64,000 nucleotides of DNA, from NCBI GenBank assembly GCA_019321725.1, contig CM033118.1, positions 14,348,071 through 14,412,070 of the forward strand, written 5' to 3'. The position numbers and the translations under genes were made by a program. This stretch comes from Paulownia fortunei. Lineage: Eukaryota > Streptophyta > Magnoliopsida > Lamiales > Paulowniaceae. Position 1 is the first letter of the stretch. Every line of letters starts with the position of its first letter. Under the pieces are notes generated by a model, which was given only the letters and a program-made list of their open reading frames with translations, did not search any database and was not told the DNA's origin. Of this stretch, positions 1-56,096 are shown piece after piece.

Positions 1-82
1 TGATTCAACCATGGCGAAAAGGTCCAAATTTTGGTAAGTTTTGTTGAACTTACATCATGTAGATTGTATTTAATTTCCGTCA
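1..82 (+). repeat. 3' end of the 5' LTR of copia A
   Basis: Identical to the last 82 bases of B's 5' LTR (56014-56095) and similar to the ends of the 3' LTRs at 13116 and 62625. It ends in CA, one base before the primer-binding site. The rest of this LTR lies outside the window. Confidence 0.85.
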
Positions 83-83
83 T

Positions 84-96
84 TGGTATCAAAGCT
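84..96 (+). other. Primer-binding site of copia A
   Basis: TGGTATCAAAGCT begins 1 base after the LTR end. It is the plant initiator-Met tRNA complement (canonical TGGTATCAGAGC) with one change. It fixes the plus orientation of A. Confidence 0.85.
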
Positions 97-550
97 ATAT
101 GTGGTTTTTCTTATGTTATTTGGCTCTGTTTAGTGCATTCAAATACTTCATTTCATGTAATTAAACAATACAACCCATTTATGAATGCTTTGTGATCTTT
201 AATGGCAAGTTATTGTATGCTTAAAAATATGTAATGACTTTTTAATAGAAGCATGCTTTAACATAGAAGAAGTAATTATAAAAGTTTTATAATGATCTAG
301 TTTGTACATTGTGAGATATTTCATACCCTCCTCGTGACTGTAAATTCAGTTTTTAGTCTATATATGTTGAGTTTTGTTGCATGAAATTTACATAATTAGA
401 TTTTACTCATAAAAGGCTTTCCGACCATGTATTATATGCAAACATCGGCTTAAAATAAGTGAAATATTGCCGTTTGAAGTTTATGTTAAATTTTGAATTT
501 TTTAAAAATTTTGAAAAACGGAAAGATGATGATGAACAGCAGCCAAACAA

Positions 551-564
551 CCCCCCCCCCCCCC
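551..564 (+). repeat. Poly-C homopolymer, 14 bases
   Basis: A run of 14 C in AT-rich DNA. The copy in B (about 56564-56577) has exactly 14 C as well, while the diverged third copy has only 4 C (about 50620). Confidence 0.9.
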
Positions 565-2739
565 TTAACTTTGTTCCAATGTATTTGGGCATGTGAGGGA
601 CTTTTCGGTGGCCATTTTTGGCCGGAAAAATACCGTTATACTTGAAATTTAATTTTTTATTTTTCTAAATTAAAATTAATTTTTCAGTTGATAAAATATC
701 TTTCTTGAATTTTATATTGTAGATTTGGTGAAAATTATAGAAAAATATTTTTTGAGCAAAATAAGTTCTGAAATTTTTTCTGTAATTTTGAAAAATTATT
801 TTGAGACATTGGCAAATGGAACTAATAGGACACTTATAGAAGTTTGAGCACATGAAAACTTTGTTTTTCTTTTTCGATGATAGGTCTATAAAATTGATTA
901 TTAGCTAATATTATGATTATAAGTGCCAAATACGCACATGATGAGATTTAGATTGACTTTGTGGCCATATTTAATTTTTGTTTTCTCATTTTGATTATTT
1001 ATGGTGGCTATTAGGCGACTAAGAATAATTCTTGGCAAGAAGCAATAGTGAACGACTATAAGCGTATAAAATATTAGAAACTTTAGAAGTCTTAATGGAG
1101 ATAATTGATTGTATGTTAACATGTGTACTGGCTTAAAATAACATGTTTAATTTGTATCATAAAATTATGCATTAAATATGATCTTCGAAATTTATGAAAG
1201 CATGATTATGTTGAAATTTATAAAAATTATGAATGCATATTTATCCTGAGTTTTATGCATTTAATATGGTGGTACATGTTTATTTTCTTAGTTGAATAAC
1301 AAGATATGTTTTTGTATGTATGATTATATTATGTTAGGTAGTCTAGTGGGAGTACAATAGTTAGAATTAAGTAATTCTCACCTAGAACTTATTAGATTTT
1401 TTGCTATGAAATTAAATTTGTAATAATGAATATTTTGATACAGATGATGATTGGGAACTAGGAAACCTTTTAAATATGTGCATTACGGTGAATTATTATA
1501 AATGTTAATTTGCTATGTATAAAATCAAATGTATAGATGGGTGAATTTGTGATATCTCTAGTATTGATGACCATAACAACCAAATGTCATATGTATACTT
1601 GCTTACACGGGAGAATTTATTGGCAATAGTTGTGACACTAAGTGCCAATAGATTTAGTATACTTATATTTGAGTTAAATGCTTTAGAGAGCATCAACCAA
1701 GTCATGTAAGACTTAGTGTGGATCATACTACTTAGTAGAGAAAACATCAACAGGGTTACCAAAAGTGGAAAAGAGATTACACTACTTATATTATTTGGGT
1801 AAACTATATGATTAATGGTCTCATATGTGAATGAGAGAATGATAGTATTGAACTATTGATTTATGGATGTAACTAAGAGAAATATATATGTACAATTGAG
1901 AATTGAGATATTAAATAATTGATAATAGTTTGACAAGAAATGTTCTGTGTATTAAAAATGTTGTATTTAAGGGTGATGTCAAATACTTTTAGAGTTTATA
2001 ATCAGCTAACAATGTCTTCGCTGATGAGTAGTAAATTCAAGTTAATTGTCTCTTTCTAATAATAGGGAACATCTGAAAGTCAAATTTAATTTACTCAATG
2101 AGAAAATACTTTCTTGGATGATGTTTACCATGTTAAGCAATTGGATAAGTAGCTAGTTGTTGCTAGTCTTGTGCCTTATGGCTGAGACTAGGTTTTAAGA
2201 GGGCTTCAGACTCTTAATATAACTGAGATCAGAACAAAGGCAAGAACAAAAAAGAGATTGGAAATGAATCTAAGAAGAACAAACCTAACCACTAAATGAA
2301 GTGAAGTTGTATAGGGTTAAAAGTGCTATAGTAACTATATTATTGGTTTATTTCACTCGTGAATACACTGAATTGAAAATATAGCATTTAATAATGCTTC
2401 TATAAGTGCTATTTACACATGAAGCACTATGTTACTAAATCTTATCCTATATGGATTATAGATTTTTAGTAATTGAATATTGAGAAGCGTTTGTGGAATT
2501 TTGCCAAGTTCACTTTGGTACAAAATGGATATATGTAGAATTAAATTGAAATCATATAGGAGGATGATTGGCACTTGCATTATTATATAAGTATCCAATA
2601 TACAAAAATTTATATATTTTGATTTTTATAATTGTTCTTCTAAGATTATTTTTTTTGCTTGAATTTGTGTTATGACTTGCTTAGTATCTACTAGAAGATA
2701 CTTAGTGTGGTACTACACATTTTGAATGGTTAGTGGTGG

Positions 2740-2827
2740 TGAATTATGACCAATGTATGTTTAATTACTACATTCATTATTTTGTTACAATTAATGTAGC
2801 AATTAAACATGCATTGGTCCTAATTCA
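2740..2827. repeat. Imperfect inverted repeat, 35-bp arms
   Basis: Arm 2740-2774 pairs with 2793-2827 with about three mismatches around an 18-base spacer. The DNA could fold into a long hairpin. It may be a foldback MITE or a structured part of the copia leader; no target duplication is evident. An identical copy lies in B at 58753-58840. Confidence 0.75.
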
Positions 2828-3667
2828 TTTGATTGTTTTGTTATAATTAATGTCTATTTTTTAAGTACTGTAAACATTAATTTATGTACTCTATGTGCAT
2901 GATCAGGTCATAATGTATAGAAACATAAACTGGTACGAGAAGACTCATTGAGTTTATTTTTTACAATTGATTATCGACTTGTGCTATAAGTTTATGTTGG
3001 GACCATTTAAAAGACTATTAACCCGAGCTTTCTTTGTTATTAATTCTTATAAATTTTTGTGATCAGACTAATGTAAAGGTTATGGAGGCATGGAGTCTCA
3101 TACTTCATTATATTTGTAAAATATTCACATGCCTTGATCATATCTAATTGAAATCTCATAATCTGAAATACTAGAGTGTCTTAGAATATGAGAGAGAATC
3201 AAATTGATATAACTTTGAGACTAGACCTAAGGCGTGAATGATTTTTCAATCATTCAAATAACCCATGTAATGAAGAAAGAGTCATAAGGTAATTTACTAT
3301 TCCTAACATGCCTGCATAGAATGGTGTTTCAAGAGAAGGAATAGAAAATTATTTTGATGTAACGAGATTTATGAAAACTCAAGTTAACTTGTTGATTTTC
3401 TTGGGAAAAAAACTTTTGGCTAGCTAGAGTCTACATTTGTATTAGAAAACCTTCATGATTTATATTTTCCATTCCACAAAATCTATGGACAGATAAATGA
3501 TTTGGCCTAAGCTACCGTAGAAGTTGGGAATTGATTGTCTCTAATTATAAATTTTCAAATAAATTTGAAAATTAGATCTCTAAGACAATAAAAGAAGATC
3601 TTGAAGATATACCAAATAGTATAAGGGTTACATGCTCTGAGTAAACAATGAGATGGAATTATGATTC

Positions 3668-5258
3668 TGTTCGTGAAATATTTTTAAACCACAAGTGCAT
3701 GGTGTTAAGTTTTAATACAATGGTGAGTTGAGTTGAGTATCCACAAGGATTGTAATAAAAAATTATAGCAAGTATTGTAGTTCAAATAGTCCTAATTTTA
3801 TCTATAAAATCAAGTCATGATTGGTAAACAAAGTACAATAAGATAAAATTACAAAAGATAATACTAGAGTTCTTAGAAGTTATACAACAAACACCTTATG
3901 AACAAGAAATTCTAGAGGAATGACTCACATAATTATAACCTATGTTCTTTCTTCCAAAACATACCAATTCAAGTCAACAACACATGTAAGTTAAGAATTC
4001 CTAAGCTCATCAATTCCCTCTCTCGAGTGTCGAATTGATTATGAGTTCTAATATGAATTGCAACATCTCTATAAAAAATCAAAAATAAAACTCTACAAAG
4101 GATCAATGAATTCTTCTTCAAAACTTCAAAGGTTTCATAAGCTTCTCAACTCTATGATTTCTAAGTTATGTTATCTTTATGATCATATATAATCTTCCCT
4201 CTCTAGAGTATCGAATCTCATGCATCAAACACTCTCAATTAATGGCCAAATAATCAAGATACAATACTAAACAAGATAACACAAACAAGATGAATAACTT
4301 GAACTAATAATATTTGGAATTCAAAACATAAGATCAAATAAGGTTACATCATCCTCTAGAAAGAAATGTTTAGTTCATCATATATGAATATAACATCAAT
4401 AAATACATAAGAAGGAACATGGAAATTATTCACCAATTTGTGAAATGGAAGAAATGGTTGAAACTCTCCTTATCTCCAAGAATGGCTCACTTTTCTCTCC
4501 AAGAATAGCTCTCTGTCATGCAGCAAGCTCTCACTGTCCAACAACCTTCTTCTGTCCAAGAACAACTCCTCATATCCATAATACCTTTAGAGGCTCTTTG
4601 GGGTCTTTAAAATTAGACGGGAGAAGCCCTAAAGAGGGCTAAAATCCCATTTTGCCGCTTTTATCCATGTGGCAACGTGTAGGTGCTGACTGGACAGCCT
4701 GGCACAGCTAGGCACCGTCTTCAACATCCTCAGCCTCTTTAAACATATTTTGGACAACTTTATATCCTGAAACTAGTTTTTATGCCTTCATACTAATTGT
4801 AGCTCTATGTCGTGGCTTTCCATAGGAACTTTAATCAAATAATTATGACATCTGTGGAGATAGTTATGCCTAAAATACCAAGATATGTCATAGCCAAAAA
4901 TTGCAGCCCAGTGCTGACTCTTGAACTCGATGTTTATTATTGATATCGATAGAATTGGATTTTTTGGTAAGCATAGAAGTTATAGATATATCTCTTGTCT
5001 TTCTATTGGTTTAAGAATCAATTCAAAATCATTTGAGCAAAGAGTTATGATTGAAATACAAAAATTATCATCAGTTGCACCACAATTCAAATTCTTCAAC
5101 ATTTCAACCAAGTTTTTTGGTTTCTTTCCATTTTCTTTCTTTTTGTCATTACCTACAAGATTTCAAACTAAATACATAAACAGTAACAAAAACACTTGAA
5201 AACAAATCAAATGTTAGTAAAAAGACATAAGAATCATTGGTATAAAACCAACTTGTCA
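3668..5258 (-). repeat. 3' LTR (left) of the Athila/Tat-like element
   Basis: Read on the minus strand it runs from TGACAAG to CGAACA, 1591 bp. It aligns along its length with 8145-9727. A plus-strand open stretch of 65 codons at 4445-4642, and its homologue in the other LTR, lie inside the LTR and are not genes. The first 750 bp or so are also present in element B. Confidence 0.88.
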
Positions 5259-5272
5259 AATACCCCAAACTT
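5259..5272 (-). other. Polypurine tract of the Athila/Tat-like element
   Basis: Minus strand reads GTTTGGGGTATT directly before the LTR start TGACAAG. Its position and purine content fit the plus-strand primer for the 3' LTR. Confidence 0.6.
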
Positions 5273-6970
5273 TACCTTTTACTCGTCCTTAAGGAAAACT
5301 CAAAATCAAACAATCATAGGCTCATACTTTGGTCATGAATTACTAAACTTGATCAACCAAATCAAATGCCTCATCAATTTTTTTTGCACATGAATCTAAA
5401 GGTTAGTCACAAAGCTAGTCAAATGACACTACAAAACTTGTGCTCCATTAATCTAGTCATGAATTCATAACGTATGTGTGTGAAGTGTCAAGCTCAAGTT
5501 CCATGCATGCATATTAGGTATGAATTTCACAACCAATGTTCTCATGGTCTAAGCAAAGGAGTTCTAGATGTTCCATAGGCTTGCTTTTCATACAAATTCT
5601 CCACTAATATAGACACTTGCAAACTTGGATCAAAAGGACTTTATTAAGCTTGTAATGTAAGACCTAGGTATTAGCTTACAAAGAAAGATGGGTATGAACA
5701 ATGTAAGAGAGCATAAAGCATTGCACATAGAATCTCACTCTCATCCTTTCTTTTATCTTTCCTAATTGTTTTTCTTTAGGATTCATGCTTTTTTTTAATT
5801 TTCTTTTTCACAATTTTTCTTCTTCTTTTTTTTAATCCCAAGGCTTCATTTCTTATTCTTTTGCTCTCACAACCCCCAAGCTTATTTCTTTTCATCAACA
5901 TAACATAAGTTGTGATATTTTTATTTTTTTTTGCATATTTTCCTTGCTCATACTTCTAAATACATTCACCCACGCCCTCAACATGTCTCCATATGATCCC
6001 TTGATAAGATTGTGATCAAAATATTATACTTTAAGCTCGCTTAGGGACAATCATTTGGTTTTTCGGGCTATAAAGGGTTGGTATAGTGAGGTTCAAGAAA
6101 TGAAGTCGAATGGTGGTCATTCGTATGCCTTGCACATACCATTCTTTGAAAAGTAGCTCAAAGGGGTAACTAGTGAATAGAAGTGTGATCATGGTAGGCT
6201 TGAATGGCATAAACGAGTGAAAGATGGCCTAAATCATTTCTAAGTTTGTAGTTATCTAGAATTTCATCTCAAAGAGTAATCAAGCAAGTTCTAGAACACC
6301 ACAAAATGACCAATACAACTCATTGGAAGCAAATTCCAACACCAAGTAGCATGTAATTCACAAGATTTTGACACGATGTGCTCAATAAAAATTCATCATT
6401 CATGACAATGATCAAAATTTACACACATGAATCGCCATGTCATAAGACTAGCAATCTTTTTTTCCTCTAGACTCTATACAATATAAATTAGGTATCATCA
6501 TAAGCAATCAGTAATTAAGTTATTCATTCAATCACAAAACATAAACTTAATTAAGTTTGTCAACAAAGTATGCTTGCTCTTGGACTTTTATCACACAACA
6601 TAGGTAATACAAATTGAAAATTTTAGCTCAGTTTTTCATATAAAGCTCAAACACACAAAATACAAATCCCACCCCAACTTTAAAATTAACATTGTCCTCA
6701 ATATTTAACGAATTAAAGCACATAAGAGATGAAAATAAAAAACTCCCCTTTCCAATAAATGATGCACTTGGAGTTCATGGGAGATCCACACATATTACCA
6801 AGTCGATATCCACCTATACAAGAAAAAGAAAGCATGAAAGCTTATGGGTTAAAGTAACAAAAAACACAAACATAGACAAAGAAATGCAATAGTTAAACAT
6901 GCCTAAATCTAGCAAGCAAACATATTTCAAAACCTAACTAAAAAATTATTAAAAATCAAAAGAAAAAAAA
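5273..6970 (-). other. Non-coding 3' region of the Athila/Tat-like element
   Basis: About 1.7 kb between the remnant polyprotein end and the 3' LTR. It is AT-rich, with T-rich runs at 5780-5830 and 5915-5930. I see no domain in any frame. Long untranslated 3' regions are usual in Athila/Tat elements. Confidence 0.5.
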
Positions 6971-7000
6971 TGGTTGGGTTGCCTCCCAATAAGCGCTTGG
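6971..7000 (-). other. Conserved Athila/Tat polyprotein-end motif
   Basis: On the minus strand this contains AAGCGCTT, then GGGAGGCAACCCAACC. I recall this motif near the end of the coding part of many plant Athila/Tat elements. Here it follows directly after protease, so pol appears deleted between about 7000 and 7033. Confidence 0.5.
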
Positions 7001-7032
7001 TTTATAGTCGTTAGCCTGACTATCTTCTTTAC

Positions 7033-7998
7033 TTATCCTGGATCTAAAAATAAGTGTTTATCATGCCACATCTTTGTGTGCTCTAAGAGTGTAGGCGATC
7101 CTTCCAGATAGGCAAGGCGAGGATGATCCGGAGTAGTATCAAGGGCCTTTTGGACATCAATAAATATATCCCCTATTACTGTGAATGGTCTTCCAAACAT
7201 GGTGAAGATGTACCTATCTTTTTCCATATTAAAAATGAAAAAAATCTGTAGAACACAAGAATTGGTCACCATTCCCAAGCATATCTTGAGTGACCCTAGT
7301 ACACCTTGCTTTATCTAGTACATATTTTCTGAAATTAAACAATGAACTGAATTATTGCTTGCATCTAGATCACATAATGCTAATTCACAAGTAGAGTTTC
7401 CAATTGAATGAGGGATAATGAAACTCCCTGAATTATTAAGCACTTGAGGTGGCTTCTCTTGCAAGATGACAATGCACTTTTCAGTAGTTTCGCACTCTTC
7501 CATTTGTTGTTGTTGTATGGCTTGGCAATGCTCATTTGGATTGATTTTTGTATCATTTGAAAAGTTTTCTTTATGTTTTTCAGCATTAATTTTAATCACA
7601 AGCTGTCTAATTTTATTTTCTATTGAATTCATTTGAGCTCCTAAACTTAAAGATAGCTGCCCCAGTTGAGTCTCAATGTTGTCTATCTTTGCTTCATTCT
7701 TATTAAATCAGACTCTCGTTTTCCCAATGAAAGTGCTTAGCAAATCTTCCAATGATGCCTTTTTCTCAACTCTGGTTTTCATAAATGAAGTGCTAGTGGA
7801 TGCCATGGAATCCATTCATTGAGAAGCTCCATAAGAAGTCCAAGCTGTAAATTTATTAGAAAGAGCAGAAATTTGGGCAACAAGTTGTGTAAACGGATCT
7901 ACCTCAAGAACACCAACAACCTTTTCAATGGAAGACCTCTTAGAAGGCCATTGATAGCTATCAGTAGCCATCGTCTCTACACTCCTAGCCTTATGCAT
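7033..7998 (-). pseudogene. gag C-terminus plus aspartic protease remnant, Athila/Tat-like
   Basis: One minus-strand frame runs through the whole interval, interrupted by three stops (near 7816, 7710 and 7315). From the start it shows a gag C-terminal block (YQWPSKRSS, then EVDPFTQLVAQISALSNKF, typical of Athila/Tat gag), a spacer, then protease. The protease has GSFIIPHSIGN, then ALCDLDAS in place of the family's ALCDLGAS active-site loop, followed by a GRPF and IDVQKA block near the end. The Gly-to-Asp change at the catalytic loop plus the stops mean no functional product. The N-terminal half of gag upstream of 7998 is not recognisable. Confidence 0.75.
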
Positions 7999-8120
7999 AC
8001 AAATATATATAAGTCAATGCAATGCAAGAGATTCATCAAAATATGGTAAGAAAGTAAAAATAATCTAGACTAAAATCAAGACTAAGTCATAACAATATTA
8101 ATGCAATTTTGATAAAACAA

Positions 8121-8138
8121 TCCTCAGCAATGGCGCCA
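8121..8138 (-). other. Primer-binding site of the Athila/Tat-like element
   Basis: Minus strand reads TGGCGCCATTGCTGAGGA, close to the tRNA-Asp complement used by Athila elements (TGGCGCCGTTGCCGGGGA). It lies 6 bases inside the right LTR. The core TGGCGCCA is palindromic, so orientation rests on its position and the flanking bases. Confidence 0.75.
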
Positions 8139-8144
8139 AAAACT

Positions 8145-9727
8145 AGTTCATGAAATATTTTGTAAACCGCAAGTGCACGGTGTCAATTTTAATACAACGA
8201 TGAGTTGAGTTGAGTATCCACAAGGATTGTAATAAAAAATTACAACAAGTATTGTAGTTCAAATAGTCCTAATTTTATCTAGAAAATCAAGTGATGACTG
8301 GTAAACAAAGTAGAATAAGATAAAATTACAAAAGATAAGACTAGAGTTCTTAGAAGTTATATAACAAACATCTTATGAACAAGGAATTCTAGAGGAAGAC
8401 TCACCTAATTATCACCTATGTTCTTCCTTCCAAAACTTACCAATTCAAGTCAACAACACATGTAAGTTAAGAATTCCTAATCTCATCAATTCCCTCTCTC
8501 GAGTGCCGAATTGATTATGAGTTCTAATATGAATTTTAATATCTCTATAAAAACTCAAGAATAAAACTCTACAAAGGATCAATGAATTCTTCTTCAAAAC
8601 TTCAAAGGTTTCATAAGCTTCTCAACTCTATGATTCCTAGGTTATGTTATCTTTATAATCATATATAATCTTCTCTCTCTCGAGTATCAAATCTCATAAA
8701 TCAAACACTCTCAATTAATAGCCAAATAATCAAGATGTAATACTAAACAAGATAACGCAACCAAGATGAATAACTTGAACTAATAATATTTAAAATTCAA
8801 AACATAGGATCAAATAAGGTTACATCATCCTCTAGAAAGAAATGTTTAGTTCATCATGTATGAATATAACATCAATAAATACATAAGAAGAAGCATGGAA
8901 ATTGTTCACCAATTTGTGAAATGGAAGAAATGGTTGAAGCTCTCCTTGTCTCCAAGAATAACTCACTTTGCTCTCCAAGAATAGCTCTTTGTCCAGCAGT
9001 AAGCTCTCAATGTCCAGCAGCCATCTTCTATCCAAGAACAACTTCTCACATCCAGAATACCTTTGGAGGCTCTTTGGGGTCCTTAAAATCATATGGGAGA
9101 AGCCCTAAAGAGGGTTGAAAACCTATTTTTCTCTCTTATCCGTGTGGAAACATGTACGCACTAACTAGACAGCCTAGCACAGGTATGTACTGTCTTCAGC
9201 GTATTCAGCCTCTTTAAACCTATGTCGTGGCTTTCCGAATCGGTATTTGGTGTCTTCATACGAATTGTAACTCTATGTCGTGGCTTTCCATAGGAACTTT
9301 AATCAAAAAATTATGACATCTGTGGAGATAGTTATGCCTGACATACCAAGATGTGTGATAGCAAAAAATTGCAGCCTATTGCTGACTCTTCAACTCGATA
9401 TTTCTTATTGATATCAATAGAATTGGATTTTATGGTAAACATAAAAGTTATAAATATATTCTTTTATTTCTATTGGTTCAAGAATCAAGTCAAAATAAGT
9501 TTTGAGCAAAGAGTTATGATTGAAATATGAAAACTGTCATCAGTTTCACCGTAATTCAGATTCTTCAACATTTCAACCAAGTTTTTGATTTCTTTCCATT
9601 TTCTCTCCGTTTTGTCATTACCTACAAGATTTCAAACTAAATACATAAAAAGTAACAAAAATACTTGAAAACAAACCAAATGTTAATAAAAAGGTATATA
9701 AATTATTGGTATAAAACCAACTTATCA
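8145..9727 (-). repeat. 5' LTR (right) of the Athila/Tat-like element
   Basis: 1583 bp, homologous to 3668-5258. Its inner edge has lost the canonical CA (minus strand reads CATGAACT where the left copy has CGAACA). The outer edge is followed by the GATTC duplication. Confidence 0.87.
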
Positions 9728-10430: not shown

Positions 10431-11720
10431 GACAAACCTTTTCACTGATGGTGATATATGCCTCTATTATATTTTCTTGGTTATTATGAATATTTTAGTA
10501 TTTGGAATTGCATCAAATAGACTAAAGACTTTATTTTCAAATGGAGAATTAGTCCATAGAGAATTATGTAAATAAACCTAAATGGAATGCTTGAAAGATT
10601 CCATAGTAGAAGGCCAAGAAGATAAAGTTTGTGAACTTAAAATCTTCATAACCTAAGACAGTTTTGAGAGAATAGTACATGAGATTTAATAACGTTGTGA
10701 TCTCATATATTTTCATCATAGAGATGAAGACCATTATTCTCTTGTAAAAAATTCTATTAAGAAGTTTATAATTCTATCTCTTTATTGGTGATATTATATT
10801 AACTAAGAAGATAAGAAGTATGTATATACCCTTGAGATATGGTTATCCTTTAACTTATGAGTTAGAGGGCACGATGAGTGAAACTTAGTATTTTGTGTTA
10901 AAATCCATGCATATCGTTCAAAAGGCATTTACTTTGTGCAAAGAGCCATATTTGTAAAATGTTAGAATGATTTATAATAAAGAGTTTTAAGCTCATAAAT
11001 ATTCCTATGTTATAAAGTTTTAGCCTTAAAATGTGTCCAAAAACTCTAAAGAGAAATGTCTAGACCATTAAATCTCAATAATTATTGTTTGGAGCTTGAT
11101 GTGCATTGTGGCCTATACTTGCTCCAAATATTTGTTATGTCATGGGCCAGAAAGTATCAATCCAATCCTAATAAGTGGCATTGGATAATAACAATGAGAA
11201 TGTTTTTACACTTTATGAGTATTGCAGATGGTTTTTTTTTTTGTATGAAGGAATATTTTCTTTGTGATTGAGAGAATATACATATGTTGATTATGGAGGT
11301 GATTTGGATAAATGTAAATCCACCTCTGAGTTTGCTCTCTTGTTTAATAAAGATGCTAGCTCTTGGAGGAGCAAGAAGCAGATATGTGTAACACTGTATA
11401 CAATTTAAGTATAACTTGTGGCATATATATCTACAGTATGATGTCAAGAGGTTTTGTACCATTTAGAAGTTTTAAGCAGTTATGTGGGAGCTCAGATAAT
11501 ATGTTAAAATAATTAGTCAGCTATTACATACAGTACTAAAGATCCCAATGCATTAAAACCAAACACACACTATAATTTTGTGAGAGATATAATTATAAAG
11601 AAATAAATATGTCTACGCATTTCATAGTAGCTACTCACTTAGCCTCAACCTAGAGATGATGTATTTATGGGCCATGTCAAATCTCTAGGACATTGGAATG
11701 TTATGTATGTGTAGATATTT
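10430..11720 (+). pseudogene. copia A reverse transcriptase - RNase H remnant
   Basis: Decayed pol read over several frames. RT pieces include LFSNGEL (family FLHGEL) and IVEGQEDKVCELK at about 10600-10650, followed by a block resembling the DEPCVY and YVDD region at about 10720-10800, in which the catalytic YVDD is not preserved. RNase H begins with ARKYQSNPNKWHW (about 11150; family SRYQSNPGKxHW), then GGDLDKCKSTSEF at about 11295, SSWRSKKQ at about 11355, and the C-terminal part FVRDIIIK and MGHVKSLG at about 11580-11690. Multiple stops and frameshifts exclude function. B retains only the RNase H half. Confidence 0.75.
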
Positions 11721-12669
11721 ATGATCATATACATTCAATGTGTAAGTATGTTAGACATGTAGAGATTGGTTCTCTCATATGAGCAATTGCCTCTGATGTT
11801 GAGTTGCATGCAGAGATGAGATATTTATGATTTTATTATGTATAAAATTATAAAGAAGATGTTAGCTTGGTGAATGATCAAGATGAGATTACTGTTGTGA
11901 ACTTAAATAATTAAAAGGGTTTCTGCTATCCATTAAACTTGTCATATGGCCAAATATGAGTTTTCTTGGTATTGGTGTTTTGTTGAGCACAAAAGAGAAG
12001 AAAATTCAGGTTAAGTGTCAGGGTACACTTGGACCAAAATCGGTATGGTGCACAAGGAAGAAGAAAGCACCATATCACATGTTTTATACTACGTGTCCCT
12101 AAGTGACCATTATGTTATGTGTTAAAAGATTCATGCTTCCTCTTTGTGTTGAGACACAGAAGTTTGTATACCCTTACAACTTTCAACTGGTTCTAAAAAC
12201 TTTAATATGGTGTTGCTACTTTAGAATGTTCCCAAAAGTCATGGATGATTTGGTAATGCGAGATATACCTAGGAAAGCATCTATTTTGAAGTTGAGAGAT
12301 CCTAGTAAGAAAGGAAGACTACTATGGCTAACATTAGTATGCATTTAGTAACCAGACAATTATGTTAAATTTAGATGTTTGGGATATAATTGTGAAATAC
12401 ATGATATGATATTAAGATCAAGTATGCTCTTATATTGAATGAGGGATCATAGATACTTGGTTGGTGTAGCAAAGAAGTCTGGGGTACAACCAGATATTTT
12501 GTTTTTATGTTTTAAAAAATTAAGTTGTTGTATATCCTTAACGAGTGTATGACATTAAGCTCTTGTTAGAATGCTCGTAGGTTGCACGATCCATTTGCTT
12601 ATATAAAATTAGTGGTGTGTATTTATGACCATAATTGACGTTGGTTCAGCCCTCATGTGTGATTAGAGA
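11721..12669 (+). other. Copia A 3' untranslated region, with an unrecognised 81-codon frame
   Basis: Between RNase H and the 3' LTR. A plus-strand frame at 12103-12348 encodes an unrecognised peptide containing DIPRKASILKLRDPSKKG. The homologous frame in B is 61638-61856 and is shorter at its start. Its preservation in two duplicates is not evidence of selection, because the flanks are equally similar. Confidence 0.4.
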
Positions 12670-13116
12670 TGTAAGAAATATTAAAGTTAAATGGGTTAAT
12701 AGGTCACTCATGAGGGCTGACCCGACCCAAATGATTTGAAGTTGAATTTTGATGGGAGTGATGTTTTGTAGTAAAAAATCAACCAACCACGTTTACTTCT
12801 CCCTATGTTTCTCCCACTTTGATATCTACATTCTGTAAAGAGAGAAAATGAAAGAAAGAAAATAAAAAGCAGAAGGGTTGTTCTTATGAGCATAATATTG
12901 AAGGTTAAGTTGTGATCAAAAAAATTGAAGAAGAACACTACTTGAGGAAGCATTTGGATTATGAATCAAAATCCATTCCGTATGTGATTGGGTTTGGATG
13001 AAAGTGATCCAAAAATCAAGAAGATAACACAGATAATTCAACCATAGCAAAAAGATCTGAATTTTGCTAAGTTTTTTTTTAACTTGCATCATATATATTG
13101 TGTTTAATTTCTGTCA
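12670..13116 (+). repeat. 3' LTR of copia A
   Basis: 447 bp from TGTAAGAAATATT to TCTGTCA. By eye it is about 95 percent identical to B's 3' LTR (62176-62625) and only about 85 percent to B's 5' LTR (55634-56095). The preceding bases GATTAGAGA could be a weak polypurine tract. Confidence 0.85.
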
Positions 13117-14999
13117 ATTTCCTATAAAATTATATTCTTTCCTTATTTCTGAATGTATAATTGTTTTGTGTTAAGAATTATTAGGAATAATTTATTTCAT
13201 AATTTATGATAATATTATGGAATAGTGTTGCAAAATATAGTTGCAGTGTACAAATATATATTTAATTGAAATCCCTGTAGCCATTTGTAGTTAATTTTAA
13301 TTGTCAACTCATGAATAAATTGTGATACATACAGACCTTGTATATTGCCATCACAATACTGAAAAATAAATTAACATAATTAGTTTAAATCCCTGTAGCT
13401 ATTATATTTTTGAAACATTTCTAAAACGTTTCTGAAATTAACAACTTGAAACACATTCGGAAATAAAAATTTTAATGCAAGATTGAGAACCTCAAGTATT
13501 AATGTGAGATCCGCCCAATCACACACCTCAAATCCTTGGAGTCTATGGTAATGCTCCAAGGAAGATGTAGAGAAAAATAGGTAGAGAGAAGAATATGGAA
13601 AGAATTATTTTGGGAGAATATTCTGTTGGTTAGGGATTGATATATATAAGAGATATATTCCTATACAAGGAAGAATCTCAGTTCAACTTGAAAACTCAAT
13701 CACACCCAAATTGTGGAGATAGCATCTAACTCACATACAGATGCCAATTGGGTGAAGGGTCTTAAACCTGATCCAATTTCCAATATCTCTCACTCATATA
13801 TATTTGACTCGATCTCCTCGAATCTCATCATCATATAATTTCTCAATCTCATATCATTCCCTTCAAACAGGAAAGAGGTATGCGACCAAGTGAGAAAGAA
13901 TATTTGAGGAGAGTCATATTAAGTCATCACCAAACTAACATAACACTAAAACTGAATAACTCGTTGTGTACCCCAAACCAAGTGGACGTACCTAATCAAG
14001 CATCTCTAGATCCAATTAAATAAGTAGAGCATGCTAGATGGCTCAAATATGTATCTATGCTCATGATTAGTCAAACACATTTCGACATAGTCGCCCGGCC
14101 TATGAAGCATAGAACATAAGTATGTTACAACTTAGTTCTTCCTCGGCCTCTCATTCCAATGAACTTAATCTTGACAGCTTTCCTAAACTTGCTCCAATAG
14201 ACTAAATCTTGCTTGGTCATGGGATACATGCTAAAGTAGCATCATCAAACTTACACTTCATGACATGGCCTAGAGTCCCAAAGGGTACAAGAAGCAATAT
14301 GGGCTCACATAGTGACAAAGTAGGGACCTATTCAATTAATTTCCCATAGGAGGTCATCTCAAAACACATGTAGTATGAATACATGCTATGATGGAGCTCC
14401 CACTCAATTTAGGCATGTCATGCCCTAAACATCATATGAATCTAAGTCCAGTCGCTCTCCAAGCACCTGACCTACGCACCACCAAAAGTCACTCTCCATA
14501 ATGCCTTTTAGTAGTTCACATATTTAGCTACAAACAAGCTTATTATGAAGTTTGGACATACTTCATAATTGATCAACTCTGATCTAATCTTAGCCTCCAA
14601 GCTAAGGCGACTCTTACTCAATCATTCGCAATCCTCAGTTATGTGACACGATCTTTAAATCTTATCGTGCTCGCTTTCACAGTGCTTGAGTGATTACTCA
14701 TGTGAGAGGGTCAATCAAAGTCTGGTGTCAACTCAAAAATCTAGTACCAAATACATAATGAGGATATAAATACATCTCATTAATCACATGTTCTCACCAC
14801 ACACAAAAAATAAATTTTACGGAATCCCTCACTCTCACATGCCTTTGGAGCATCACATCTCCATATAAAGGTAAGATATAAGTGATCGCACCACTTGTAG
14901 AAATATGCATGAGAATAATTTAATTATGCACAACACTCTTTAAGTGAAGTAATTTAAAAATTAATTTAAAAATAAACACATGCAACAATAATTATTGCA
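13117..14999. other. Unassigned AT-rich sequence, no coding seen
   Basis: No frame of length, no protein motif, no terminal repeats that I can pair. The more GC-balanced block at 13500-14900 has the texture of retroelement non-coding sequence and could be a further LTR or the outer part of the copia C LTR, but I found no second copy in the window. Confidence 0.4.
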
Positions 15000-30554: not shown

Positions 30555-33245
30555 TGTAACACCCCCATTCCTACACAACCATATATATTGTATAATTTGA
30601 CATGATAGAACCTGTGTGCATGCATGGAATATTTTTTTTTATAACACTTTAAGAAAAGATATATCACTTCTTACATACACAACCCTGTTTAAAATAGAAG
30701 GATCAGTATTTATATAAAAAACACAACACCCATAACGACCACAATATTTACATACTTATTTACAGTAAAGTTTTAAAAGAGAAATATAGTACCAATCTAA
30801 AAACATAATACACCAGACTCAAAATATAACAAGCCAACAAAATAGCCCAACAGGTCGTCATCCATGTACACACTCCCTCAAACACCTGCAGGAGCTCCAA
30901 CAGCCGACCAACCAGCCAAAGATGCTTCAAGCATCGTCGTACTCACCTACAATGCATAAACTATATGAGCTAACGCTCAGCAAGTAAAGATTATGCATGT
31001 CAAAGAATAATCCACAATATCAAGTCATGCAACTCAAAATGCTATGCTCACAATGCAATTTTATGCATCAAAATATTTCTCTCAAAATCATTTCTTTCTT
31101 GGGCCCCTGACCAACGCTACTATCCCATACACCGGAAAAGAGCTCTGTACACCACCATAATCCAATGGCCAATAATCATATAAGCATACAAATCCATACA
31201 TACTCATACGCATGCAAATCCATGCACGCGAACCTGCAAATCCATGCATTAACCATGCAAATCCATGCATGCTTCGATGCACTAGTAGTGGTCAGCAAAA
31301 CATTTTCCTTTCTCTGAATCATGCCGTGCAATGCAAGATTTATCACAATGCTCGTATATGATGCATGCACGTGCTAATGACAATGCCCATGTATGTATGC
31401 TCAATGGAGAGCCCTCTACTATGCACATATGATTTATGATATCACATATAATTCACACATCTACTATGTCTATGCATTATAGTTGCAAATGAATCTTTAC
31501 TTACCTTTCACTTGGTTGGTGGCTTAGTCTAAATTTGTTTAGTACTCCTCTCCAACCTTAGATGTAAAATAACCTGTAATATTACCCAACATCAAGCACC
31601 ATTCCCAATTTGGCATGTTGAAAGCACAAAATCTCATACTAGACCTTAAACACCAAGCTATAAGGCTAACAATCAAACTTTCACAAACTAGAACCCAATA
31701 TAGCCCCTCAAATACCTCAATTTCTCATCTTAAAATGCATGAAAAAATCATGTGATTGAAGTATTATAACTCTAATAGCATGTACCTAATTGTTAACACT
31801 CAATAGCAACATATCATGGTTGAAACATGCTAAGTGATCAAATGTGGCAGATTCACATTTTCATATTTTCTTGCTGTCAAGTTTAGTTGCATGATAATTT
31901 TAACATCCCTAAGCATATCCAATCACTCCCAAATTTTTACCACACTTATATAACATGTATATAAATGTAACAATATCATATTATTGCTAAAAATCACGGA
32001 TATAGCTTCCCAAGTTCAGCTCTCTTCACGACATACTGAAACAGATTGTTTCCTACCGTGACAGTTTTGCACACTTCATGACATTAATGGTTTTGGCACC
32101 CTTAAGTATATTCAATCACTCCAAATTTTCACCATACTTAGATAGCATATATAAGGAGACAACCAGGTCATATTATTACCAAAAATAATGGATTTATCTC
32201 CCTTAATTCAGTTTCCTTCACAGCACACCAAAACAGATTTTGCTATTTTGGCAGTTTGAGTGTTTCTCCAATATCATTCTCTATTTCAATTTCCAACTGA
32301 TAAAACTTCATTCCAATACTCTTAACTCATATATGGTCATGTAAATGGTAATAATTATAGGTTTTATTCAACATACCATACACCTTTGAAGCCTAAAACA
32401 CAAGAAAATAGTAAGATGACAGTTTCTGCCACAAGTATTTCCTATTAAGTGTTTGTGATCAAAAACCCTTTCTTTGTGCACCAAAGTCTAAATAAAAACT
32501 TCCTAACACTTTTATAAGAGATATTGAAAGCTTAAAAAACCATAAAACCATTCATAATAATCTGAAAACCAAAGGCAAAACCGTAGATAAGTGTTACCTA
32601 TGCAGATTTTGAGGCTAACTTGATGGTAATCACTTCTTTGCTTTTCTTGCTTTTATTTCAACTTGGAATCAATTTGGATCACTTGGAGACCTTAAGGTGT
32701 GTGTTTGGAGATGAAAATGGCTGAAATGAAGGTCTGGTCGTTGCTTAAGGGTGAAGGGTTTGAGGTGTTAGCTTGAGATGTTAGCTTAAGCTTAATAAGA
32801 AAGCATGAGGTGGCAAGTAAATGGCAAAATCTGATTTTGTCCCTTATCTTGCAGCCCTAATCTTATTATATCATGTCCAATATCCCAAGTATGCTAATTT
32901 ACAAATATATACTTTTGAAATAACTTGATCAAATCAAATTAAACCGTATAGGTTACTAGTAACACTTTTAACACTTCCAAAATTATAACCTATATATCCC
33001 ATCTATATCTAATATTGATCCACCTCATTTTCTTCTTATTTCAATATAAAATCAACTACTTAGATTAAGAAATTCAATAAATAATATCGTGCAAGAGCTT
33101 CAGCATTAAGTTTAATATTCAAGAATGTCGTATAAAATAAAATAAATTATGCAATGTCAATAGAAATGCAAATAGCATATAAAATTAACATGTAATGCAT
33201 GAATCATATTTGGCCATGTGAGTAGTAAGAGGCTCGGGTATCACA
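30555..33245 (-). repeat. 3' LTR (left) of G3
   Basis: 2691 bp from TGTAACACCCCC to GGGTATCACA. Shorter than the right LTR mainly through a deletion near 32880 that removes what is 36825-37010 in the other copy. Confidence 0.9.
31187..31275. promoter_or_regulatory. Array of ATGCAAATCCATGCA-type repeats in the G3 LTR
   Basis: About five spaced copies of a near-palindromic unit combining ATGCAAAT and CATGCA. CATGCA is the RY core bound by plant B3 factors (LEC2/FUS3/ABI3) and ATGCAAAT resembles the octamer of plant histone promoters. Copies occur in the right LTR (about 35137-35230) and in G6 (about 48572-48635). Regulatory action is inferred only. Confidence 0.45.
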
Positions 33246-33300
33246 TCCTCCCCTCCTTAAAAATTTTCGTCCCCAAAATTTCACTTACCGAAAAGTTCAG
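33246..33300 (-). other. Polypurine tract and pol tail of G3
   Basis: Minus strand shows TTTTGGGGACGAAAATTTTT and then AAGGAGGGGAGGA immediately before the LTR start TGTGATACCC. This is the usual end of coding plus polypurine tract in this gypsy type. An assembly gap follows on its other side. Confidence 0.8.
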
Positions 33301-33400
33301 NNNNNNNNNNNNNNNNNNNNNNNNNNNNNNNNNNNNNNNNNNNNNNNNNNNNNNNNNNNNNNNNNNNNNNNNNNNNNNNNNNNNNNNNNNNNNNNNNNNN
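33301..33400. other. Assembly gap of 100 N
   Basis: Exactly 100 N, a conventional placeholder, so the true length is unknown. The missing part should be the pol region of G3; the distance between its LTRs is therefore unreliable. Confidence 0.97.
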
Positions 33401-34339
33401 TGACACACATCTTCTGGCATTAGTGCTTTTCCTTGTTCGACCCGTGGCCTCTTATTTTGACCTTCTTGTTGTTGGCCTTGTTCTCCTGAAATTTAAATCC
33501 CGGCTTCTGTATTTGGATCGGCTTCTGCATTTGGAATGGCCTCTTTCCCCATAGTCCATCTCTGTCCCTGCTGTCTGAACTGCTGTCGAGCCTCATGTGC
33601 ACGAACGATTCTCAATTCAGCCTATTCTGCCACCAACGCCCTCTCAGCCACCTGTGAAAATGTCACCCCTTGAGTACCGCCATATTCACATCCCGTTATA
33701 ACTCTGGCCTCAAACCCTCCAGAAATCTCTCTACTTTCAGTACTTCAGTGCTGACCATGTGCGTAGCCAACCTGGACAGTTGTTCAAATTTACGAATATA
33801 TTCCCCAACAGTCATCGCTCCTTGTCGCAGTTGTATAAACTCGTTCATCTTCATCATGCGAATTGGAGCTGTGAAATATTTGTTTCGGAATAACTCCTTG
33901 AATCTATCCCAGCTCATGGTAGTAATGTCCTCTATACTGCTAATCATGTCCCACCAATGGCCTGCACTACCGCGAAGCATGAAAGTGGCACACATTACCC
34001 TCTCCTCTACTGGCACCCTGCTGTACTGGAACATGTTCTCCAGGGTCCTCAACCAGTCCTCTGCAGCGGTAGGATCAATAGCATCCTCAAATGTTGGGGG
34101 ATCCAGTCTCCGAAATCATTTCCCACCATATATATATAGTCTGCCCGCTGTTGGTTTACCTCCACCCGTGGTTGCTCACCATTATCCCTTGCTGAATCAA
34201 TTGTTGAATCTGTTCGGACTGTCATTCAATCAATTCTGTTAACCGATTAATCATGGTATCTCGATCATTAACCGGGATGGGTGTCTCATTCCTCTGTGCT
34301 CTGGCACCACCACTCTCTCACCATGAGTTCTCTCACCAT
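33401..34339 (-). pseudogene. gypsy G3 gag
   Basis: Minus strand, ATG expected at 34337-34339. Close relative of G2 gag. The clean stretch 33696-34052 encodes RTLENMFQYSRV, GSAGHWWD, SWDRFKELFRNKYF, RQGAMTVGEYIRKFEQLSR and RFLEGLRPEL, the full capsid core. The N-terminus is broken by a repeated MVRE segment and frameshifts, and further shifts occur after 33696. The zinc knuckle side runs into the assembly gap. Confidence 0.85.
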
Positions 34340-34493
34340 TTTGCAGCACTGTTTATACAAGTTTGACAACATATGGCCAATATAATTTATGAAATATGAA
34401 ATGCAATATATGATAATATAAAACTTATTGGCATGGCTGCGCTCTGCAAGTTTCAAAGGTTATGTACATGGACAGTCTACAGAATCAAGACTT

Positions 34494-34509
34494 GGGCTCT
34501 GATACCACT
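34494..34509 (-). other. Primer-binding site of G3
   Basis: Minus strand GTGGTATCAGAGCCC, 1-2 bases beyond the LTR end. Exact initiator-Met tRNA complement over TGGTATCAGAGC. Confidence 0.92.
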
Positions 34510-34510
34510 C

Positions 34511-37389
34511 TGTAACACCCCCATTCCTACACAACCATATATATTGTATAATTTGACATGATAGAACCTGTGTGCATGCATGGAATATTTTTTTGTAACA
34601 CTTTAAGAAAAGATATATCACTTCTTACATACACAACCCTGTTTAAAATAGAAGGATCAGTATTTATATAAAAACACAACACCCATAACGACCACAATAT
34701 TTACATACTTATTTATAGTAAAGTTTTAAAAGAAGAAATATAGTACCAATCTAAAAACATAATACACCAGACTCAAAATATAACAAGCCAACAAAATAGC
34801 CCAACAGGTCGTCATCCATGTACACACTCCCTCAAACACCTGCAGGAGCTCCAACAGCCGACCAACCAGCCAAAGATGCTTCAAGCAATCGTCGTACTCA
34901 CCTACAATGCATAAACTATATGAGCTAACGCTCAGCAAGTAAAGATTATGCATGTCAAAGAATAATCCACAATATCAAGTCATGCAACTCAAAATGCTAT
35001 GCTCACAATGCAATTTTATGCATCAAAATATTTCTCTCAAAATCATTTCTTTCTTGGGCCCCTGACCAACGCTACTATCCCATACACCGGAAAAGAGCTC
35101 TGTACACCACCATAATCCAATGGCCAATAATCATATAAGCATGCAAATCCATACATACTCATACGCATGCAAATCCATGCACGCGAACCTGCAAATCCAT
35201 GCATAAAACCATGCAAATCCATGCATGCTTCGATGCACTAGTAGTGGTCAGCAAAACATTTTTCTTTCTCTGAATCATGCCGTGCAATGCAAGATTTATC
35301 ACAATGCTCGTATATGATGCATGCACGTGCTAATGACAATGCCCATGTATGTATGCTCAATGGAGAGCCCTCTACTATGCACATATGATTTATGATATCA
35401 CATATAATTCACACATCTACTATGTCTATGCATTGTGGTTGCAAATGAATCTTTACTTACCTTTCACTTGGTTGGTGGCTTAGTCTAAATTTGTTTAGTA
35501 TTCCTCTCCAACCTTAAATGTAAAATAACCTGTAATATTACCCAACATCAAGCACCATTCCCAATTTGGCAAGTTGAAAGCACAAAATCTCATACTAGAC
35601 CTTAAACACCAAGCTATAAGCTAACAATCAAGCTTTCACAAACTAGAACCCAATATAGCCCCTCAAATACCTCAATTCCTCATCTTAAATGCATGCAAAC
35701 ATCATGTAATTGAAGTATTATAACTCTAATAGCATGTACCTAATTGTTAACACTCAATAGCAACATATCAAGGTTGAAACATGCTAAGTGATCAAATGTG
35801 GCAGATTCACATTTTCATATTTTCTTGCTGTCAAGTTTAGTTGCATGATAATTTTAACATCCCTAAGCATATCCAATCACTCCCAAATTTTTACCACACT
35901 TATATAACATGTATATAAATGTAACCATATCATAGAATTGCTAAAAATCACGTATATAGCTTCCCAAGTTCAGCTCTCTTCACGACATACTGAAACAGAT
36001 TGTTTCCTACCGTGACAGTTTTGCACACTTCATGACATTAATGGTTTTGGCACCCTTAAGTATATTCAATCACTCCAAAATTTTCACCATACTTAGATAG
36101 CATATATAAGGAGACAACCAGGTCATATTATTACCAAAAATAATGGATTTAGCTCCCTTAATTCAGTTTCCTTCACAGCACACCAAAACAGATTTTGCTA
36201 TTGTGGCAGTTTGAGTGTTTCTCCAATATCATTCTCTATTTCAATTTCCAACTGATAAAACTTCATTCCAATACTCTTAACTCATATATGGTCATCTAAA
36301 TGGTAATAATTATAGTTTTTATTCAACATACCATACACTTTTGTAGCCTAAAACACAAGAAAACAGTAAGATGACAGTTTCTGCCACAAGTATTTCCTAT
36401 TAAGTGTTTGTGATCAAAAACCCTTTCTTTGTGCACCAAAGTCTGACTAAAAACTTCCTAACACTTTTATAAGATATATTTAAAGCTTAACAAACCATAA
36501 AACCATTCATAATAATCTGAAAACCAAAGGAAAAACCGTAGATAAGTGTTACCTATGCAGATTTTGAGGCTAACTTGATGGTAATCACTTCTTCTTTGCT
36601 TTTCTTGCTTTTATTTCAACTTGGAATCAATTTGGATCACTTGGAGACCTTAAGGTGTGTGTTTGGAAGATGAAAATGGCTGAAATGAGGGTCTGGTCAT
36701 TGCTTAAGGGTGAAGGGTTTGAGGTGTTAGCTTGAGATGTTAGCTTAAGCTTAATAAGAAAGCATGAGGTGGCAAGTAAATGGCAAAATCTGATTTTGTC
36801 CCTTATCTTGCAGCCCTAATCTTGTGTGTCTCACCTATTTTTATTTGGTTGCAACCTATCTTAATCACCATTCATTCCCATAGGTAATTCCTATGTCCGT
36901 TCATTCGATCTCCAAACCGATTCGCATCCGATTCTTAAAGAATTATCTAGTTTGCATTTCTAAAATTATATGCACATAAGGGCCTTGTAATATGACACTT
37001 AAATCATATTATATAATGTCCAATATCCCAAGTATGCTAATTTACAAATATATACTTTTGAAATAACTTGATCAAATCAAATTAAACCGTATAAGGTTAC
37101 TAGTAACACTTTTAGCACTTCTAAAATTATAACCTATATATCCCATCTATATCTAATATTGATCCACCTCATTTTCTTCTTATTTCAATATAAAATCAAC
37201 TACTTAGATTAAGAAATTCAATAACTAATATCGTGCAAGAGCTTCAGCATTAAGTTTAATATTCAAGAATGTCGTATAAAATAAAATAAATTATGCAATG
37301 TCAATAGAAATGCAAATAGCATATAAAATTAACATGTAATGTATGAATCATATTTGGCCATGTGAGTAGTAAGAGGCTCGGGTATCACA
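34511..37389 (-). repeat. 5' LTR (right) of G3
   Basis: 2879 bp, same ends as the left LTR. Contains the same repeat array near 35137-35230. The adjoining TGTAA at 37390 serves both as target duplication and as the start of the G4 LTR. Confidence 0.92.
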
Positions 37390-50162: not shown

Positions 50163-50895
50163 ATAGTTTTTCTGATGTTATTTAGCTTTGTTTAATGCGT
50201 TCGAATACTTCGTTTCATGCAATTAAACAATACAACCCATTTATGAATGCTTTGTGATCTTTAATGGCAAGTTATTATATGCTTAAAAATATGTAGTGAC
50301 TTTTTAACAGAAGCATGCTTTTACATAGAAGAAGTAATTATAAAAGTTTTATAATGATCTAGTTTGTACATTGTGAGATATTTCATACCCCCCTCGTGAC
50401 TGTAAATTCGGTTTTCAGTCTATATATGTTGAGTTTTGTTGCATGAAATTTATATAATTAGATTCTACTCATAAAAGGCTTTCTGACCATATATTATATA
50501 TAAAAATCGGCTTAAAATAAGTGAAATATTGCTGTTTGAAGTTTATGTCAAATTTTGAATTTTTTAAAAATTTTGAAAAATGGAAAGATGATGATGAACA
50601 GTAGCCCAACAGCCAAACAACCCCTTAACTTTGTTCCAATGTATTTGGGCGCGTGAGGGACTTTTCTGTGGCCATTTTTGGCCGGAAAAATACTGTTATG
50701 CTTGAAATTTATTTTTTTATTTTTTTAGATTAAAATTAATTTTTTAGTTGATAAAATATCTTTCCTGAATTTTATAACGTAAATTTTGGTGAAAATTATA
50801 GAAAAATATTTTTTGAGCAAAATAAGTTCTAAAACTTTTTTTGTAAATTTTGGAAAATTATTTTGAGATATTGGCTACTTAATAGAACTAATAGG
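50163..50895 (+). mobile_element. Fragment of copia A leader (third copy)
   Basis: Aligns with about 101-825 of element A (and 56114-56838 of B), roughly 90 percent by eye, in the same orientation. It starts just after A's primer-binding site and ends in the middle of the leader. The poly-C run is reduced to 4 bases and a short duplication (agcccaacagccaaac) replaces it. Confidence 0.85.
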
Positions 50896-51039
50896 GGATC
50901 ATCATATAAATAATACTCTATCTCTTTTTATATTGTGGTTCATTTGGGCTGAACAATTAAAAGCACAGACATTTTGTCTCCAATCATAATCATGTGATTT
51001 GAAGAACATTTGATCATTTACATATTATTCATCATGCCA

Positions 51040-51560
51040 AGTTAGATTCTCAAAATTTCTGGAAGGGAGCGATGGCAGCAACTACTAGGTTGGATGATGA
51101 GGCAAAAATGAGTTTAAGTGGTACGCTAGGAAAAGACATCCCCTAGTTGTTTTATATTGAATACGGATGTTGCTTTGAAAGAAAATCCAGGATTTTCAGG
51201 TGCAAGGGGCCTTCTTTGTGATGGTGCAGGAAATTTTATTTCTTATTCCTTGGAGAGACAACCAACATGGAGATGGAATTGGCAACATTGGCTCAAGGAC
51301 TCAATTATGTCAACAATATAGAATCCATAACTTATTGATTGAGGTTGATTCACAAATACTTTTGCATCTTATCAAGGGTTATCAATAGGGTTGGTGGAAT
51401 GTGTTAAAGTATATTACACAATCAAGGTTAGTTCTGAAAAAGATGACTTGTAGATTCACACACATTTATAGGGAATGAAAAAATGGTTGTTGACATACTT
51501 GCAAATATACTTGCAAACATAACATGTAGTTTGCTTACTAATGGGATTTTCATGCCTCTC
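51040..51560 (+). pseudogene. RNase H-like domain remnant (non-LTR retrotransposon or host type)
   Basis: Over three frames the plus strand reads LNTDVALKENPGFSGARGLLCDGAGNF (family LNTDGASKGNPG, AGxGGLLRD, GNF), then ELATLAQGLNYV, then LLIEVDSQILLHLIKG and finally THIY and VVDILANILAN. These are the blocks of the RVT_3 type RNase H domain found at the end of plant LINE polyproteins and in related host proteins. At least two frameshifts; the second Asp-containing block is partly lost. Which source it comes from is undecided. Confidence 0.65.
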
Positions 51561-56095: not shown

Positions 56096-56096
56096 T

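What the first reader, a model, noticed from the sequence alone, without database searches (positions are those of the whole stretch)
1..4415. 4.4 kb repeated 56,013 bases away with no visible difference
1-4415 and 56014-60428 agree at every place I compared, at a constant offset, including a 14-base C run, five short frames and the palindrome. Neighbouring parts of the same two elements differ by about 5 percent. The block is non-coding, so selection cannot explain it. Options are recent gene conversion, a very recent duplication of part of the element, or an assembly error that reused one read set.
Basis: seen in the sequence. Interest (0 to 1): 0.75.

Follow-up and report, generated by a model that had tools for sequence, protein, structure and literature searches.

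The report
Recently homogenised stretch of duplicated retrotransposons
Two copies of an old plant DNA duplication that differ by about 5 percent on either side are letter-for-letter identical over 7,380 bases, most likely because one copy recently overwrote part of the other during DNA repair, although an assembly fault cannot yet be excluded.

Summary
Window 1-4416 equals 56014-60429 without a difference. DNA fetched upstream shows the identity starting 2,963 bases before the window, so the tract is 7,380 bp. On both sides the copies stay homologous but differ by 4.9% (205 substitutions in 4,205 sites of four flanking segments; about 360 expected in the tract). The copies are duplicates of one piece of chromosome, not two insertions: they share a decayed retrotransposon (E) at one insertion site and a second one (X) cut into E at the same base; one copy later gained a 9-kb element where the other keeps the empty site. 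The host is a plant (best gag matches: Olea). Identity bounded on both sides inside an old duplication fits recent interlocus gene conversion. Tandem duplication, retrotransposition and a misplaced haplotig are contradicted. Reuse of one consensus by the assembler remains possible, since no reads were available. Two other duplicate pairs in this assembly (C1, C3), picked because they looked identical, also switch sharply between zero and 5-7% difference: either active conversion or a recurrent artefact.

The parts
1..4416 (+). Left copy (A) of the identical tract, the part inside the window; the tract starts 2,963 bases upstream of the window
   Evidence: 0 of 4,416 positions differ; extension upstream
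53050..60429 (+). Right copy (B) of the identical tract, complete, 7,380 bp
   Evidence: exact equality with -2963..4416
52429..53049 (+). Left flank in B, homologous to -3583..-2964 of A, 32 of 619 sites differ (5.17%); TTGTG at 52429-52433 is the empty target site of the A-only 9-kb element (-12542..-3584, TSD TTATG)
50890..52430 (+). Further left flank in B, homologous to -14035..-12546 of A (40 of 869 and 30 of 620 sites differ)
4417..4465 (+). Right edge in A: homology to B goes on for 49 bp with 3 differences (4417, 4428, 4463), then B is deleted
1..82 (+). End of the 5' LTR of element E, copy A (LTR -379..82; TSD ATTTC at -384..-380), followed by a primer-site-like TGGTATCAAAGC at 84-95
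55634..56095 (+). 5' LTR of E, copy B; TSD ATTTC at 55629-55633
12670..13116 (+). 3' LTR of E, copy A; TSD ATTTC at 13117-13121
62176..62625 (+). 3' LTR of E, copy B; flank GTTTC at 62626-62630
3668..9727 (-). Element X nested in E of copy A: LTRs 3668-5258 and about 8145-9727 (9.1% different), TSD GATTC at 3663-3667 and 9728-9732
   Evidence: orientation from a primer-site-like word, recalled
59681..60478 (-). Remnant of X in copy B at the same base of E (GATTC at 59676-59680), cut at 60478 and joined to E at 60487
11018..13116 (+). 3' part of E in copy A, right flank of the tract beyond X
   Evidence: 11018-13119 against 60487-62630: 103 of 2,097 sites differ
60487..62625 (+). 3' part of E in copy B
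30555..37389 (-). LTR element spanning the 100-N gap (33301-33400); TSD TGTAA at 30550-30554 and 37390-37394. Supports the contig join between the two copies

Best explanation
A piece of chromosome carrying element E with X nested in it was duplicated long ago (4.9% divergence; about 1.9 million years at 1.3e-8 substitutions per site per year, the rate quoted in PMC7251063). The copies lie tens of kb apart and diverged: copy A gained a 9-kb LTR element, copy B lost most of X. Very recently (0 of 7,380 sites; 95% bound about 16,000 years at that rate) one copy served as the repair template for the other by homologous recombination without crossover, overwriting 7,380 bp (interlocus gene conversion). 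On the right the tract ends 49 bp before homology stops at B's deletion, on the left 620 bp from the A-only insertion; strand exchange would be expected to stop near such breaks. Shown: the tract, both boundaries, shared origin, order of events. Inferred: that a repair event made it and that it was without crossover. Unknown: which copy was donor.
For: Zero differences in 7,380 bp against 4.88% in 4,205 flanking sites on both sides. Shared insertion sites of E and X and an A-only insertion with its empty site in B show that A and B are old DNA duplicates. Divergences fall in order: E LTRs 18%, X LTRs 9.1%, duplicates 4.9%, A-only element's LTRs 34 substitutions in a 1,987-column alignment, tract 0. 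The contig join between the copies is supported by target-site duplications on both sides of the gap. None of 25 other repeat pairs in the 184 kb has a clean run above 500 bp. Mean conversion length in human duplications is 6.26 kbp (PMC10172114, passages).
Against: No reads were available. In the C1 and C3 pairs, too, the aligned stretches are either at zero or at 5-7%, with nothing between; conversions spread over time should leave intermediate values. Conversions within plant LTRs are mostly 100-1,000 bp (PMC7251063, passages). The unplaced contigs C847/C258 and C336/C305 give equal scores, which hints at leftover duplicates in this assembly. The 25 control pairs are all shorter (at most 4 kb) than the tract, and 7 of them have p of 0.05 or less for a longer clean run than permutation gives, so mild patchiness is common.
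Confidence: 0.6

Rival explanations
1. Assembly or consensus artefact: the copies really differ by ~5% throughout, but reads or a corrected sequence of one copy were used for both within the longest uninterrupted homologous stretch.
For: The tract lies within the longest uninterrupted homologous stretch of the pair (8.0 kb). The two-state picture (0 or 5-7%) recurs on C1 and C3. A 100-N gap lies between the copies, a mark of false duplications (PMC9516828, passages). Unplaced contigs in equal-scoring pairs.
Against: 25 other repeat pairs, up to 4 kb and 98% identical, were kept apart, and seven dispersed copies of a 6.2-kb repeat at 97-98% mean identity were not merged (only mean identities seen). 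Only 49 bp of non-identical homology remain on the right, little for a read of the other copy to anchor on (inference). On C3 two single indels inside the clean blocks suggest separate consensus for each copy.
Confidence: 0.28
2. Unequal crossover between the old duplicates made a tandem copy of a ~56-kb unit, with a hybrid repeat.
For: Fits the window alone: identity to the left of 4416, divergence to the right.
Against: The identity stops 2,963 bp upstream of the window and the flank there differs by 5.17%, instead of running on for ~56 kb.
Confidence: 0.04
3. Two haplotypes of one locus placed in line (false heterotype duplication).
For: Gap between the copies; insertions and deletions private to each copy.
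Against: The colinear series of matches stops about 12 kb or more from the gap on both sides; the other same-orientation matches near the gap are the LTR pair of the element spanning it or LTR-family matches out of order. Two nested elements have matching target-site duplications across the join: TGTAA and GAAG.
Confidence: 0.05
4. Two recent insertions of one retrotransposon, or the two LTRs of one young element.
For: The block is retrotransposon sequence, and young insertions are identical.
Against: The tract crosses element borders (flank, 5' LTR, E interior, part of X). E's own LTRs are only 82% identical. Both copies share the E and X insertion sites.
Confidence: 0.01

Closest known systems
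Interlocus (non-allelic) gene conversion in segmental duplications, e.g. human (PMC10172114, abstract and passages seen)
   Same: Near-perfect identity over several kb between paralogs that differ elsewhere; intrachromosomal; similar length (mean there 6.26 kbp).
   Different: Here the copies are only ~95% identical, made of plant retrotransposons, and seen in one assembly, so donor and acceptor cannot be told.
Gene conversion among plant LTR retrotransposons (PMC7251063, abstract and passages seen)
   Same: Homogenised stretches among LTR retrotransposon copies in plants.
   Different: Those tracts are within LTRs and mostly 100-1,000 bp; this one is 7,380 bp and crosses element borders and flanking DNA.
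False duplications in assemblies (PMC9516828, abstract and passages seen)
   Same: Copies on one scaffold with a gap between them.
   Different: Homology does not reach the gap, the join is supported by target-site duplications, and the flanks are 5% diverged with private insertions and deletions.
Tandem LTR-retrotransposon arrays (PMC11899658, abstract and outline seen)
   Same: Repeated LTR-element DNA on one chromosome.
   Different: No shared internal LTR and no array; the copies are 56 kb apart with other elements between.

Membership tests
Interlocus gene conversion | A tract between paralogs far more alike than the rest of the pair | tested here: met
   0 of 7,380 against 205 of 4,205 sites
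Interlocus gene conversion | Tract bounded on both sides by homologous sequence at background divergence | tested here: met
   Left: 32 of 619 sites. Right: 3 of 49, then 103 of 2,097 beyond B's deletion
Interlocus gene conversion | Flanks not exchanged (no crossover) | tested here: inconclusive
   Each copy keeps its own private insertion or deletion, but the state before the event is unknown
Interlocus gene conversion | Donor and acceptor shown by an unconverted orthologous pair | not testable with these tools
   No related genome or second haplotype held
Interlocus gene conversion | Present in the DNA, not only in the assembly | not testable with these tools
   No reads
Unequal-crossover tandem duplication | Identity over the whole ~56-kb unit | tested here: not met
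   Ends 2,963 bp upstream of the window
False heterotype duplication (haplotig) | Homology running to a contig end, with an unsupported join | tested here: not met
   Colinear matches stop about 12 kb or more short of the gap; TSDs match across the join
False heterotype duplication (haplotig) | Half read depth | not testable with these tools
   No reads
LTR pair or independent insertions of one element | Identity confined to the element, own target sites | tested here: not met
   Tract crosses E's 5' border; shared insertion sites

The most novel reading that the evidence does not exclude
Neighbouring retrotransposon-laden duplications in this plant are being overwritten now, in long (4-9 kb) tracts without crossover, at several places of the genome (C14 here; C1 at 40 kb spacing; C3 at 33 kb spacing). 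Retrotransposon-dense DNA would then be a site of frequent, very recent long-tract template repair between copies only ~95% alike, and element ages read from such regions would be misleading.
Probability: 0.2. Interest if true: 0.5.

Novelty: new member of a known kind. Interest (0 to 1): 0.32.

Why it matters
If real, it is a well-bounded, datable case of long ectopic gene conversion between paralogs only ~95% identical in repeat-rich plant DNA. It would show that ages taken from LTR or duplicate divergence can be reset locally. If it is an artefact, it warns that this assembly homogenises duplicates in patches, and names two further places to check.

Tried and rejected
Direction of the conversion: X's left and right LTRs differ by 6.0% inside the tract and 11.9% beyond it, which looked like a clue. 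Most of the 20 other X LTRs fetched show the same contrast between the two halves (first half 7.5-9.6% against A's left LTR, second half 13% or more, in all 20), so it belongs to the family and says nothing on direction. At 4417, 4428 and 4463 copy B has the commoner base of the family (16, 11 and 17 of 20 copies) and A another. I first took this as a switch into X's right LTR, which B matches there without a substitution; ordinary 5% divergence explains it as well.

Tandem duplication by unequal crossover: attractive from the window alone, dropped when upstream DNA showed the tract to be bounded. Haplotig: dropped on the target-site duplications across the gap and the lack of colinearity near it.

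Host and element names: Pfam found nothing (E up to 0.1) in eight short pieces of E, X and neighbours. That E is Ty1/copia-like rests on RNase H-like words read by eye, and that X is gypsy-like on its primer-site-like and gag-like words; both labels are recalled, from no call. The gag-protease of a neighbouring element matches Olea europaea best (65% identity). Rfam and tRNA scans of the window were empty.

Farther homology (17663-18340 against 62643-63321, 8.88%; 18394-19539 against 63321-64469, 8.46%; -24807..-22569 against 46544-48812, 6.76%) was left out of the 4.88% background because these are LTR-family sequences whose orthology I could not prove; including them would raise it.
Full report
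Observation. Every one of the 4,416 positions of 1-4416 equals 56014-60429; differences start at 4417 and 4428, and BLAST homology ends at 4462/60475. The window cuts the repeat at its left end. The whole-assembly search placed the window at C14:14348071-14412070 of a 509-Mb assembly in 1,247 contigs and found only these two places with ~100% identity to 1-4462 (its counts are lower bounds). With 60 kb fetched on each side, the identity proved to extend 2,963 bases further left and then stop: the tract is -2963..4416 = 53050..60429, 7,380 bp.

Background divergence. Outside the tract the copies align as follows (substitutions/sites): -14035..-13165 40/869; -13166..-12546 30/620; -3583..-2964 32/619; 11018..13119 103/2,097. 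Together 205/4,205, or 4.88%. About 360 differences are expected in 7,380 bp and none is seen (ln P about -369). Immediately right of the tract 3 of 49 bp differ before B's deletion. Further segments that may belong to the same duplication differ by 6.8-8.9% and were not used.

What the DNA is. It is a plant region packed with LTR retrotransposons: a neighbouring element encodes gag and protease domains, and its closest relatives are plant proteins, Olea first. Element E has LTRs of about 450 bp (A: -379..82 and 12670-13116; B: 55634-56095 and 62176-62625), a primer-site-like TGGTATCAAAGC at 84-95, and the target-site duplication ATTTC (one base changed at B's 3' end). Its 3' part shows RNase H-like words of Ty1/copia type (read by eye, recalled; Pfam gave no match to the pieces). 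Element X (3668-9727, LTRs 9.1% different, TSD GATTC) sits in E of copy A. Copy B holds 798 bp of the same X LTR at the same base of E, then jumps to E at the equivalent of 11018. A 9-kb element (-12542..-3584, TSD TTATG; 34 substitutions in a 1,987-column LTR alignment) is in A only, and B has the empty site TTGTG. The tract's part upstream of E holds one 132-aa frame (54878-55276, minus, in B) without a Pfam match.

Order of events. E's LTRs are 82% identical, X's differ by 9.1%, the duplicates by 4.9%, the A-only element's LTRs by about 2%, the tract by 0. These agree with one history: E inserted, X inserted into E, the locus was duplicated, A gained an element and B lost DNA, then the tract was homogenised. 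At 1.3e-8 substitutions per site per year (quoted in PMC7251063, passages) the duplication is about 1.9 million years old and the tract at most about 16,000 years. The rate for this plant is unknown; the ratio, over 100-fold, does not depend on it.

Mechanism. A bounded tract of zero difference inside an old duplication, with order and private flanks kept, is the picture of interlocus gene conversion by template repair. The right end lies 49 bp from the point where homology stops, the left end 620 bp from it. Lengths of this order are common in human duplications (mean 6.26 kbp, PMC10172114, passages), whereas conversions within plant LTRs are mostly 100-1,000 bp (PMC7251063, passages).

Rivals. 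Unequal crossover predicts identity over ~56 kb upstream and fails. A misplaced haplotig predicts homology up to a contig end and a wrong join. The join at 33301-33400 is supported by an LTR element spanning it (TSD TGTAA on both contigs) and by GAAG on both sides of the LTR it interrupts; the colinear matches stop about 12 kb or more from the gap. Retrotransposition fails because the tract crosses element borders. An assembly or consensus fault remains possible. Against it: among the 25 other repeat pairs of at least 1.4 kb and 90% identity in the 184 kb (two of them segments of this same duplication) the longest clean run is 500 bp; permutation p runs from 0.001 to 0.78, with 7 of 25 at 0.05 or below, so mild patchiness exists but nothing like the tract. 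Seven dispersed copies of a 6.2-kb repeat keep 2-3% mean difference. For it: the pairs measured base by base are all shorter than the tract, and some unplaced contigs come in equal-scoring pairs.

A second look elsewhere. Of the 20 X LTR copies fetched two pairs gave equal counts; they were followed for that reason, so they are not a random sample. On C1, two copies 40,271 bp apart are clean over at least 15104501-15108666, carry 104 differences and gaps in 15108667-15110705, are clean over 15110706-15117122, and show 43 substitutions in the last ~870 bp; left of about 15104250 they no longer align at this offset, in an array of ~1.15-kb repeats. On C3, two copies 32,619 bp apart alternate over 17 kb: diverged up to 16903553, clean for 4,774 bp, 21 differences in 323 bp, no substitution in 8,918 bp (one indel), 22 differences in 404 bp, no substitution in at least 2,027 bp (one indel). 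A 1,626-bp stretch of the C3 repeat is identical at a third place 1.7 Mb away. So sharp switches between 0 and 5-7% recur in this assembly, by active conversion or by a recurrent artefact; the lack of intermediate values is the strongest point for the artefact. In C3 near-identity is the background and the diverged islands are the exception, unlike C14.

Verdict. Observation confirmed and extended. Gene conversion is favoured (0.6), an assembly fault is the main rival (0.28). The kind of event is known; the case is a clear example with one decisive test outstanding: reads.

Noticed in passing
L041, L042, L045, L046, L051, L052 (C1:15102001-15118000 and its copy 40,271 bp on): Duplicate pair with two clean blocks (at least 4.1 kb and 6,417 bp) separated and followed by ~5% diverged stretches.
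   Followed up: partly
L043, L044, L047-L050, L053-L056 (C3:16903001-16920000 and its copy 32,619 bp on): Near-identical pair with three diverged stretches of about 320-550 bp and sharp edges; a 1,626-bp stretch is identical at a third place, L036.
   Followed up: partly
G000 contigs C847/C258 and C336/C305: Unplaced contigs that give equal match ranges and scores in pairs, suggesting leftover duplicates in the assembly.
   Followed up: no
21927-27821: LTR element with 98% identical LTRs and only a gag-protease frame (486 aa, minus strand) between them.
   Followed up: no
30555-37389 with 33301-33400: LTR element spanning the assembly gap, itself inserted 5 bp into another LTR; both target-site duplications are readable across the gap.
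   Followed up: yes
50166-50895: Fragment of E's leader (91.8% identical to 104-829) joined directly to a gag-like fragment of another element; its C run is 4 long instead of 14.
   Followed up: no
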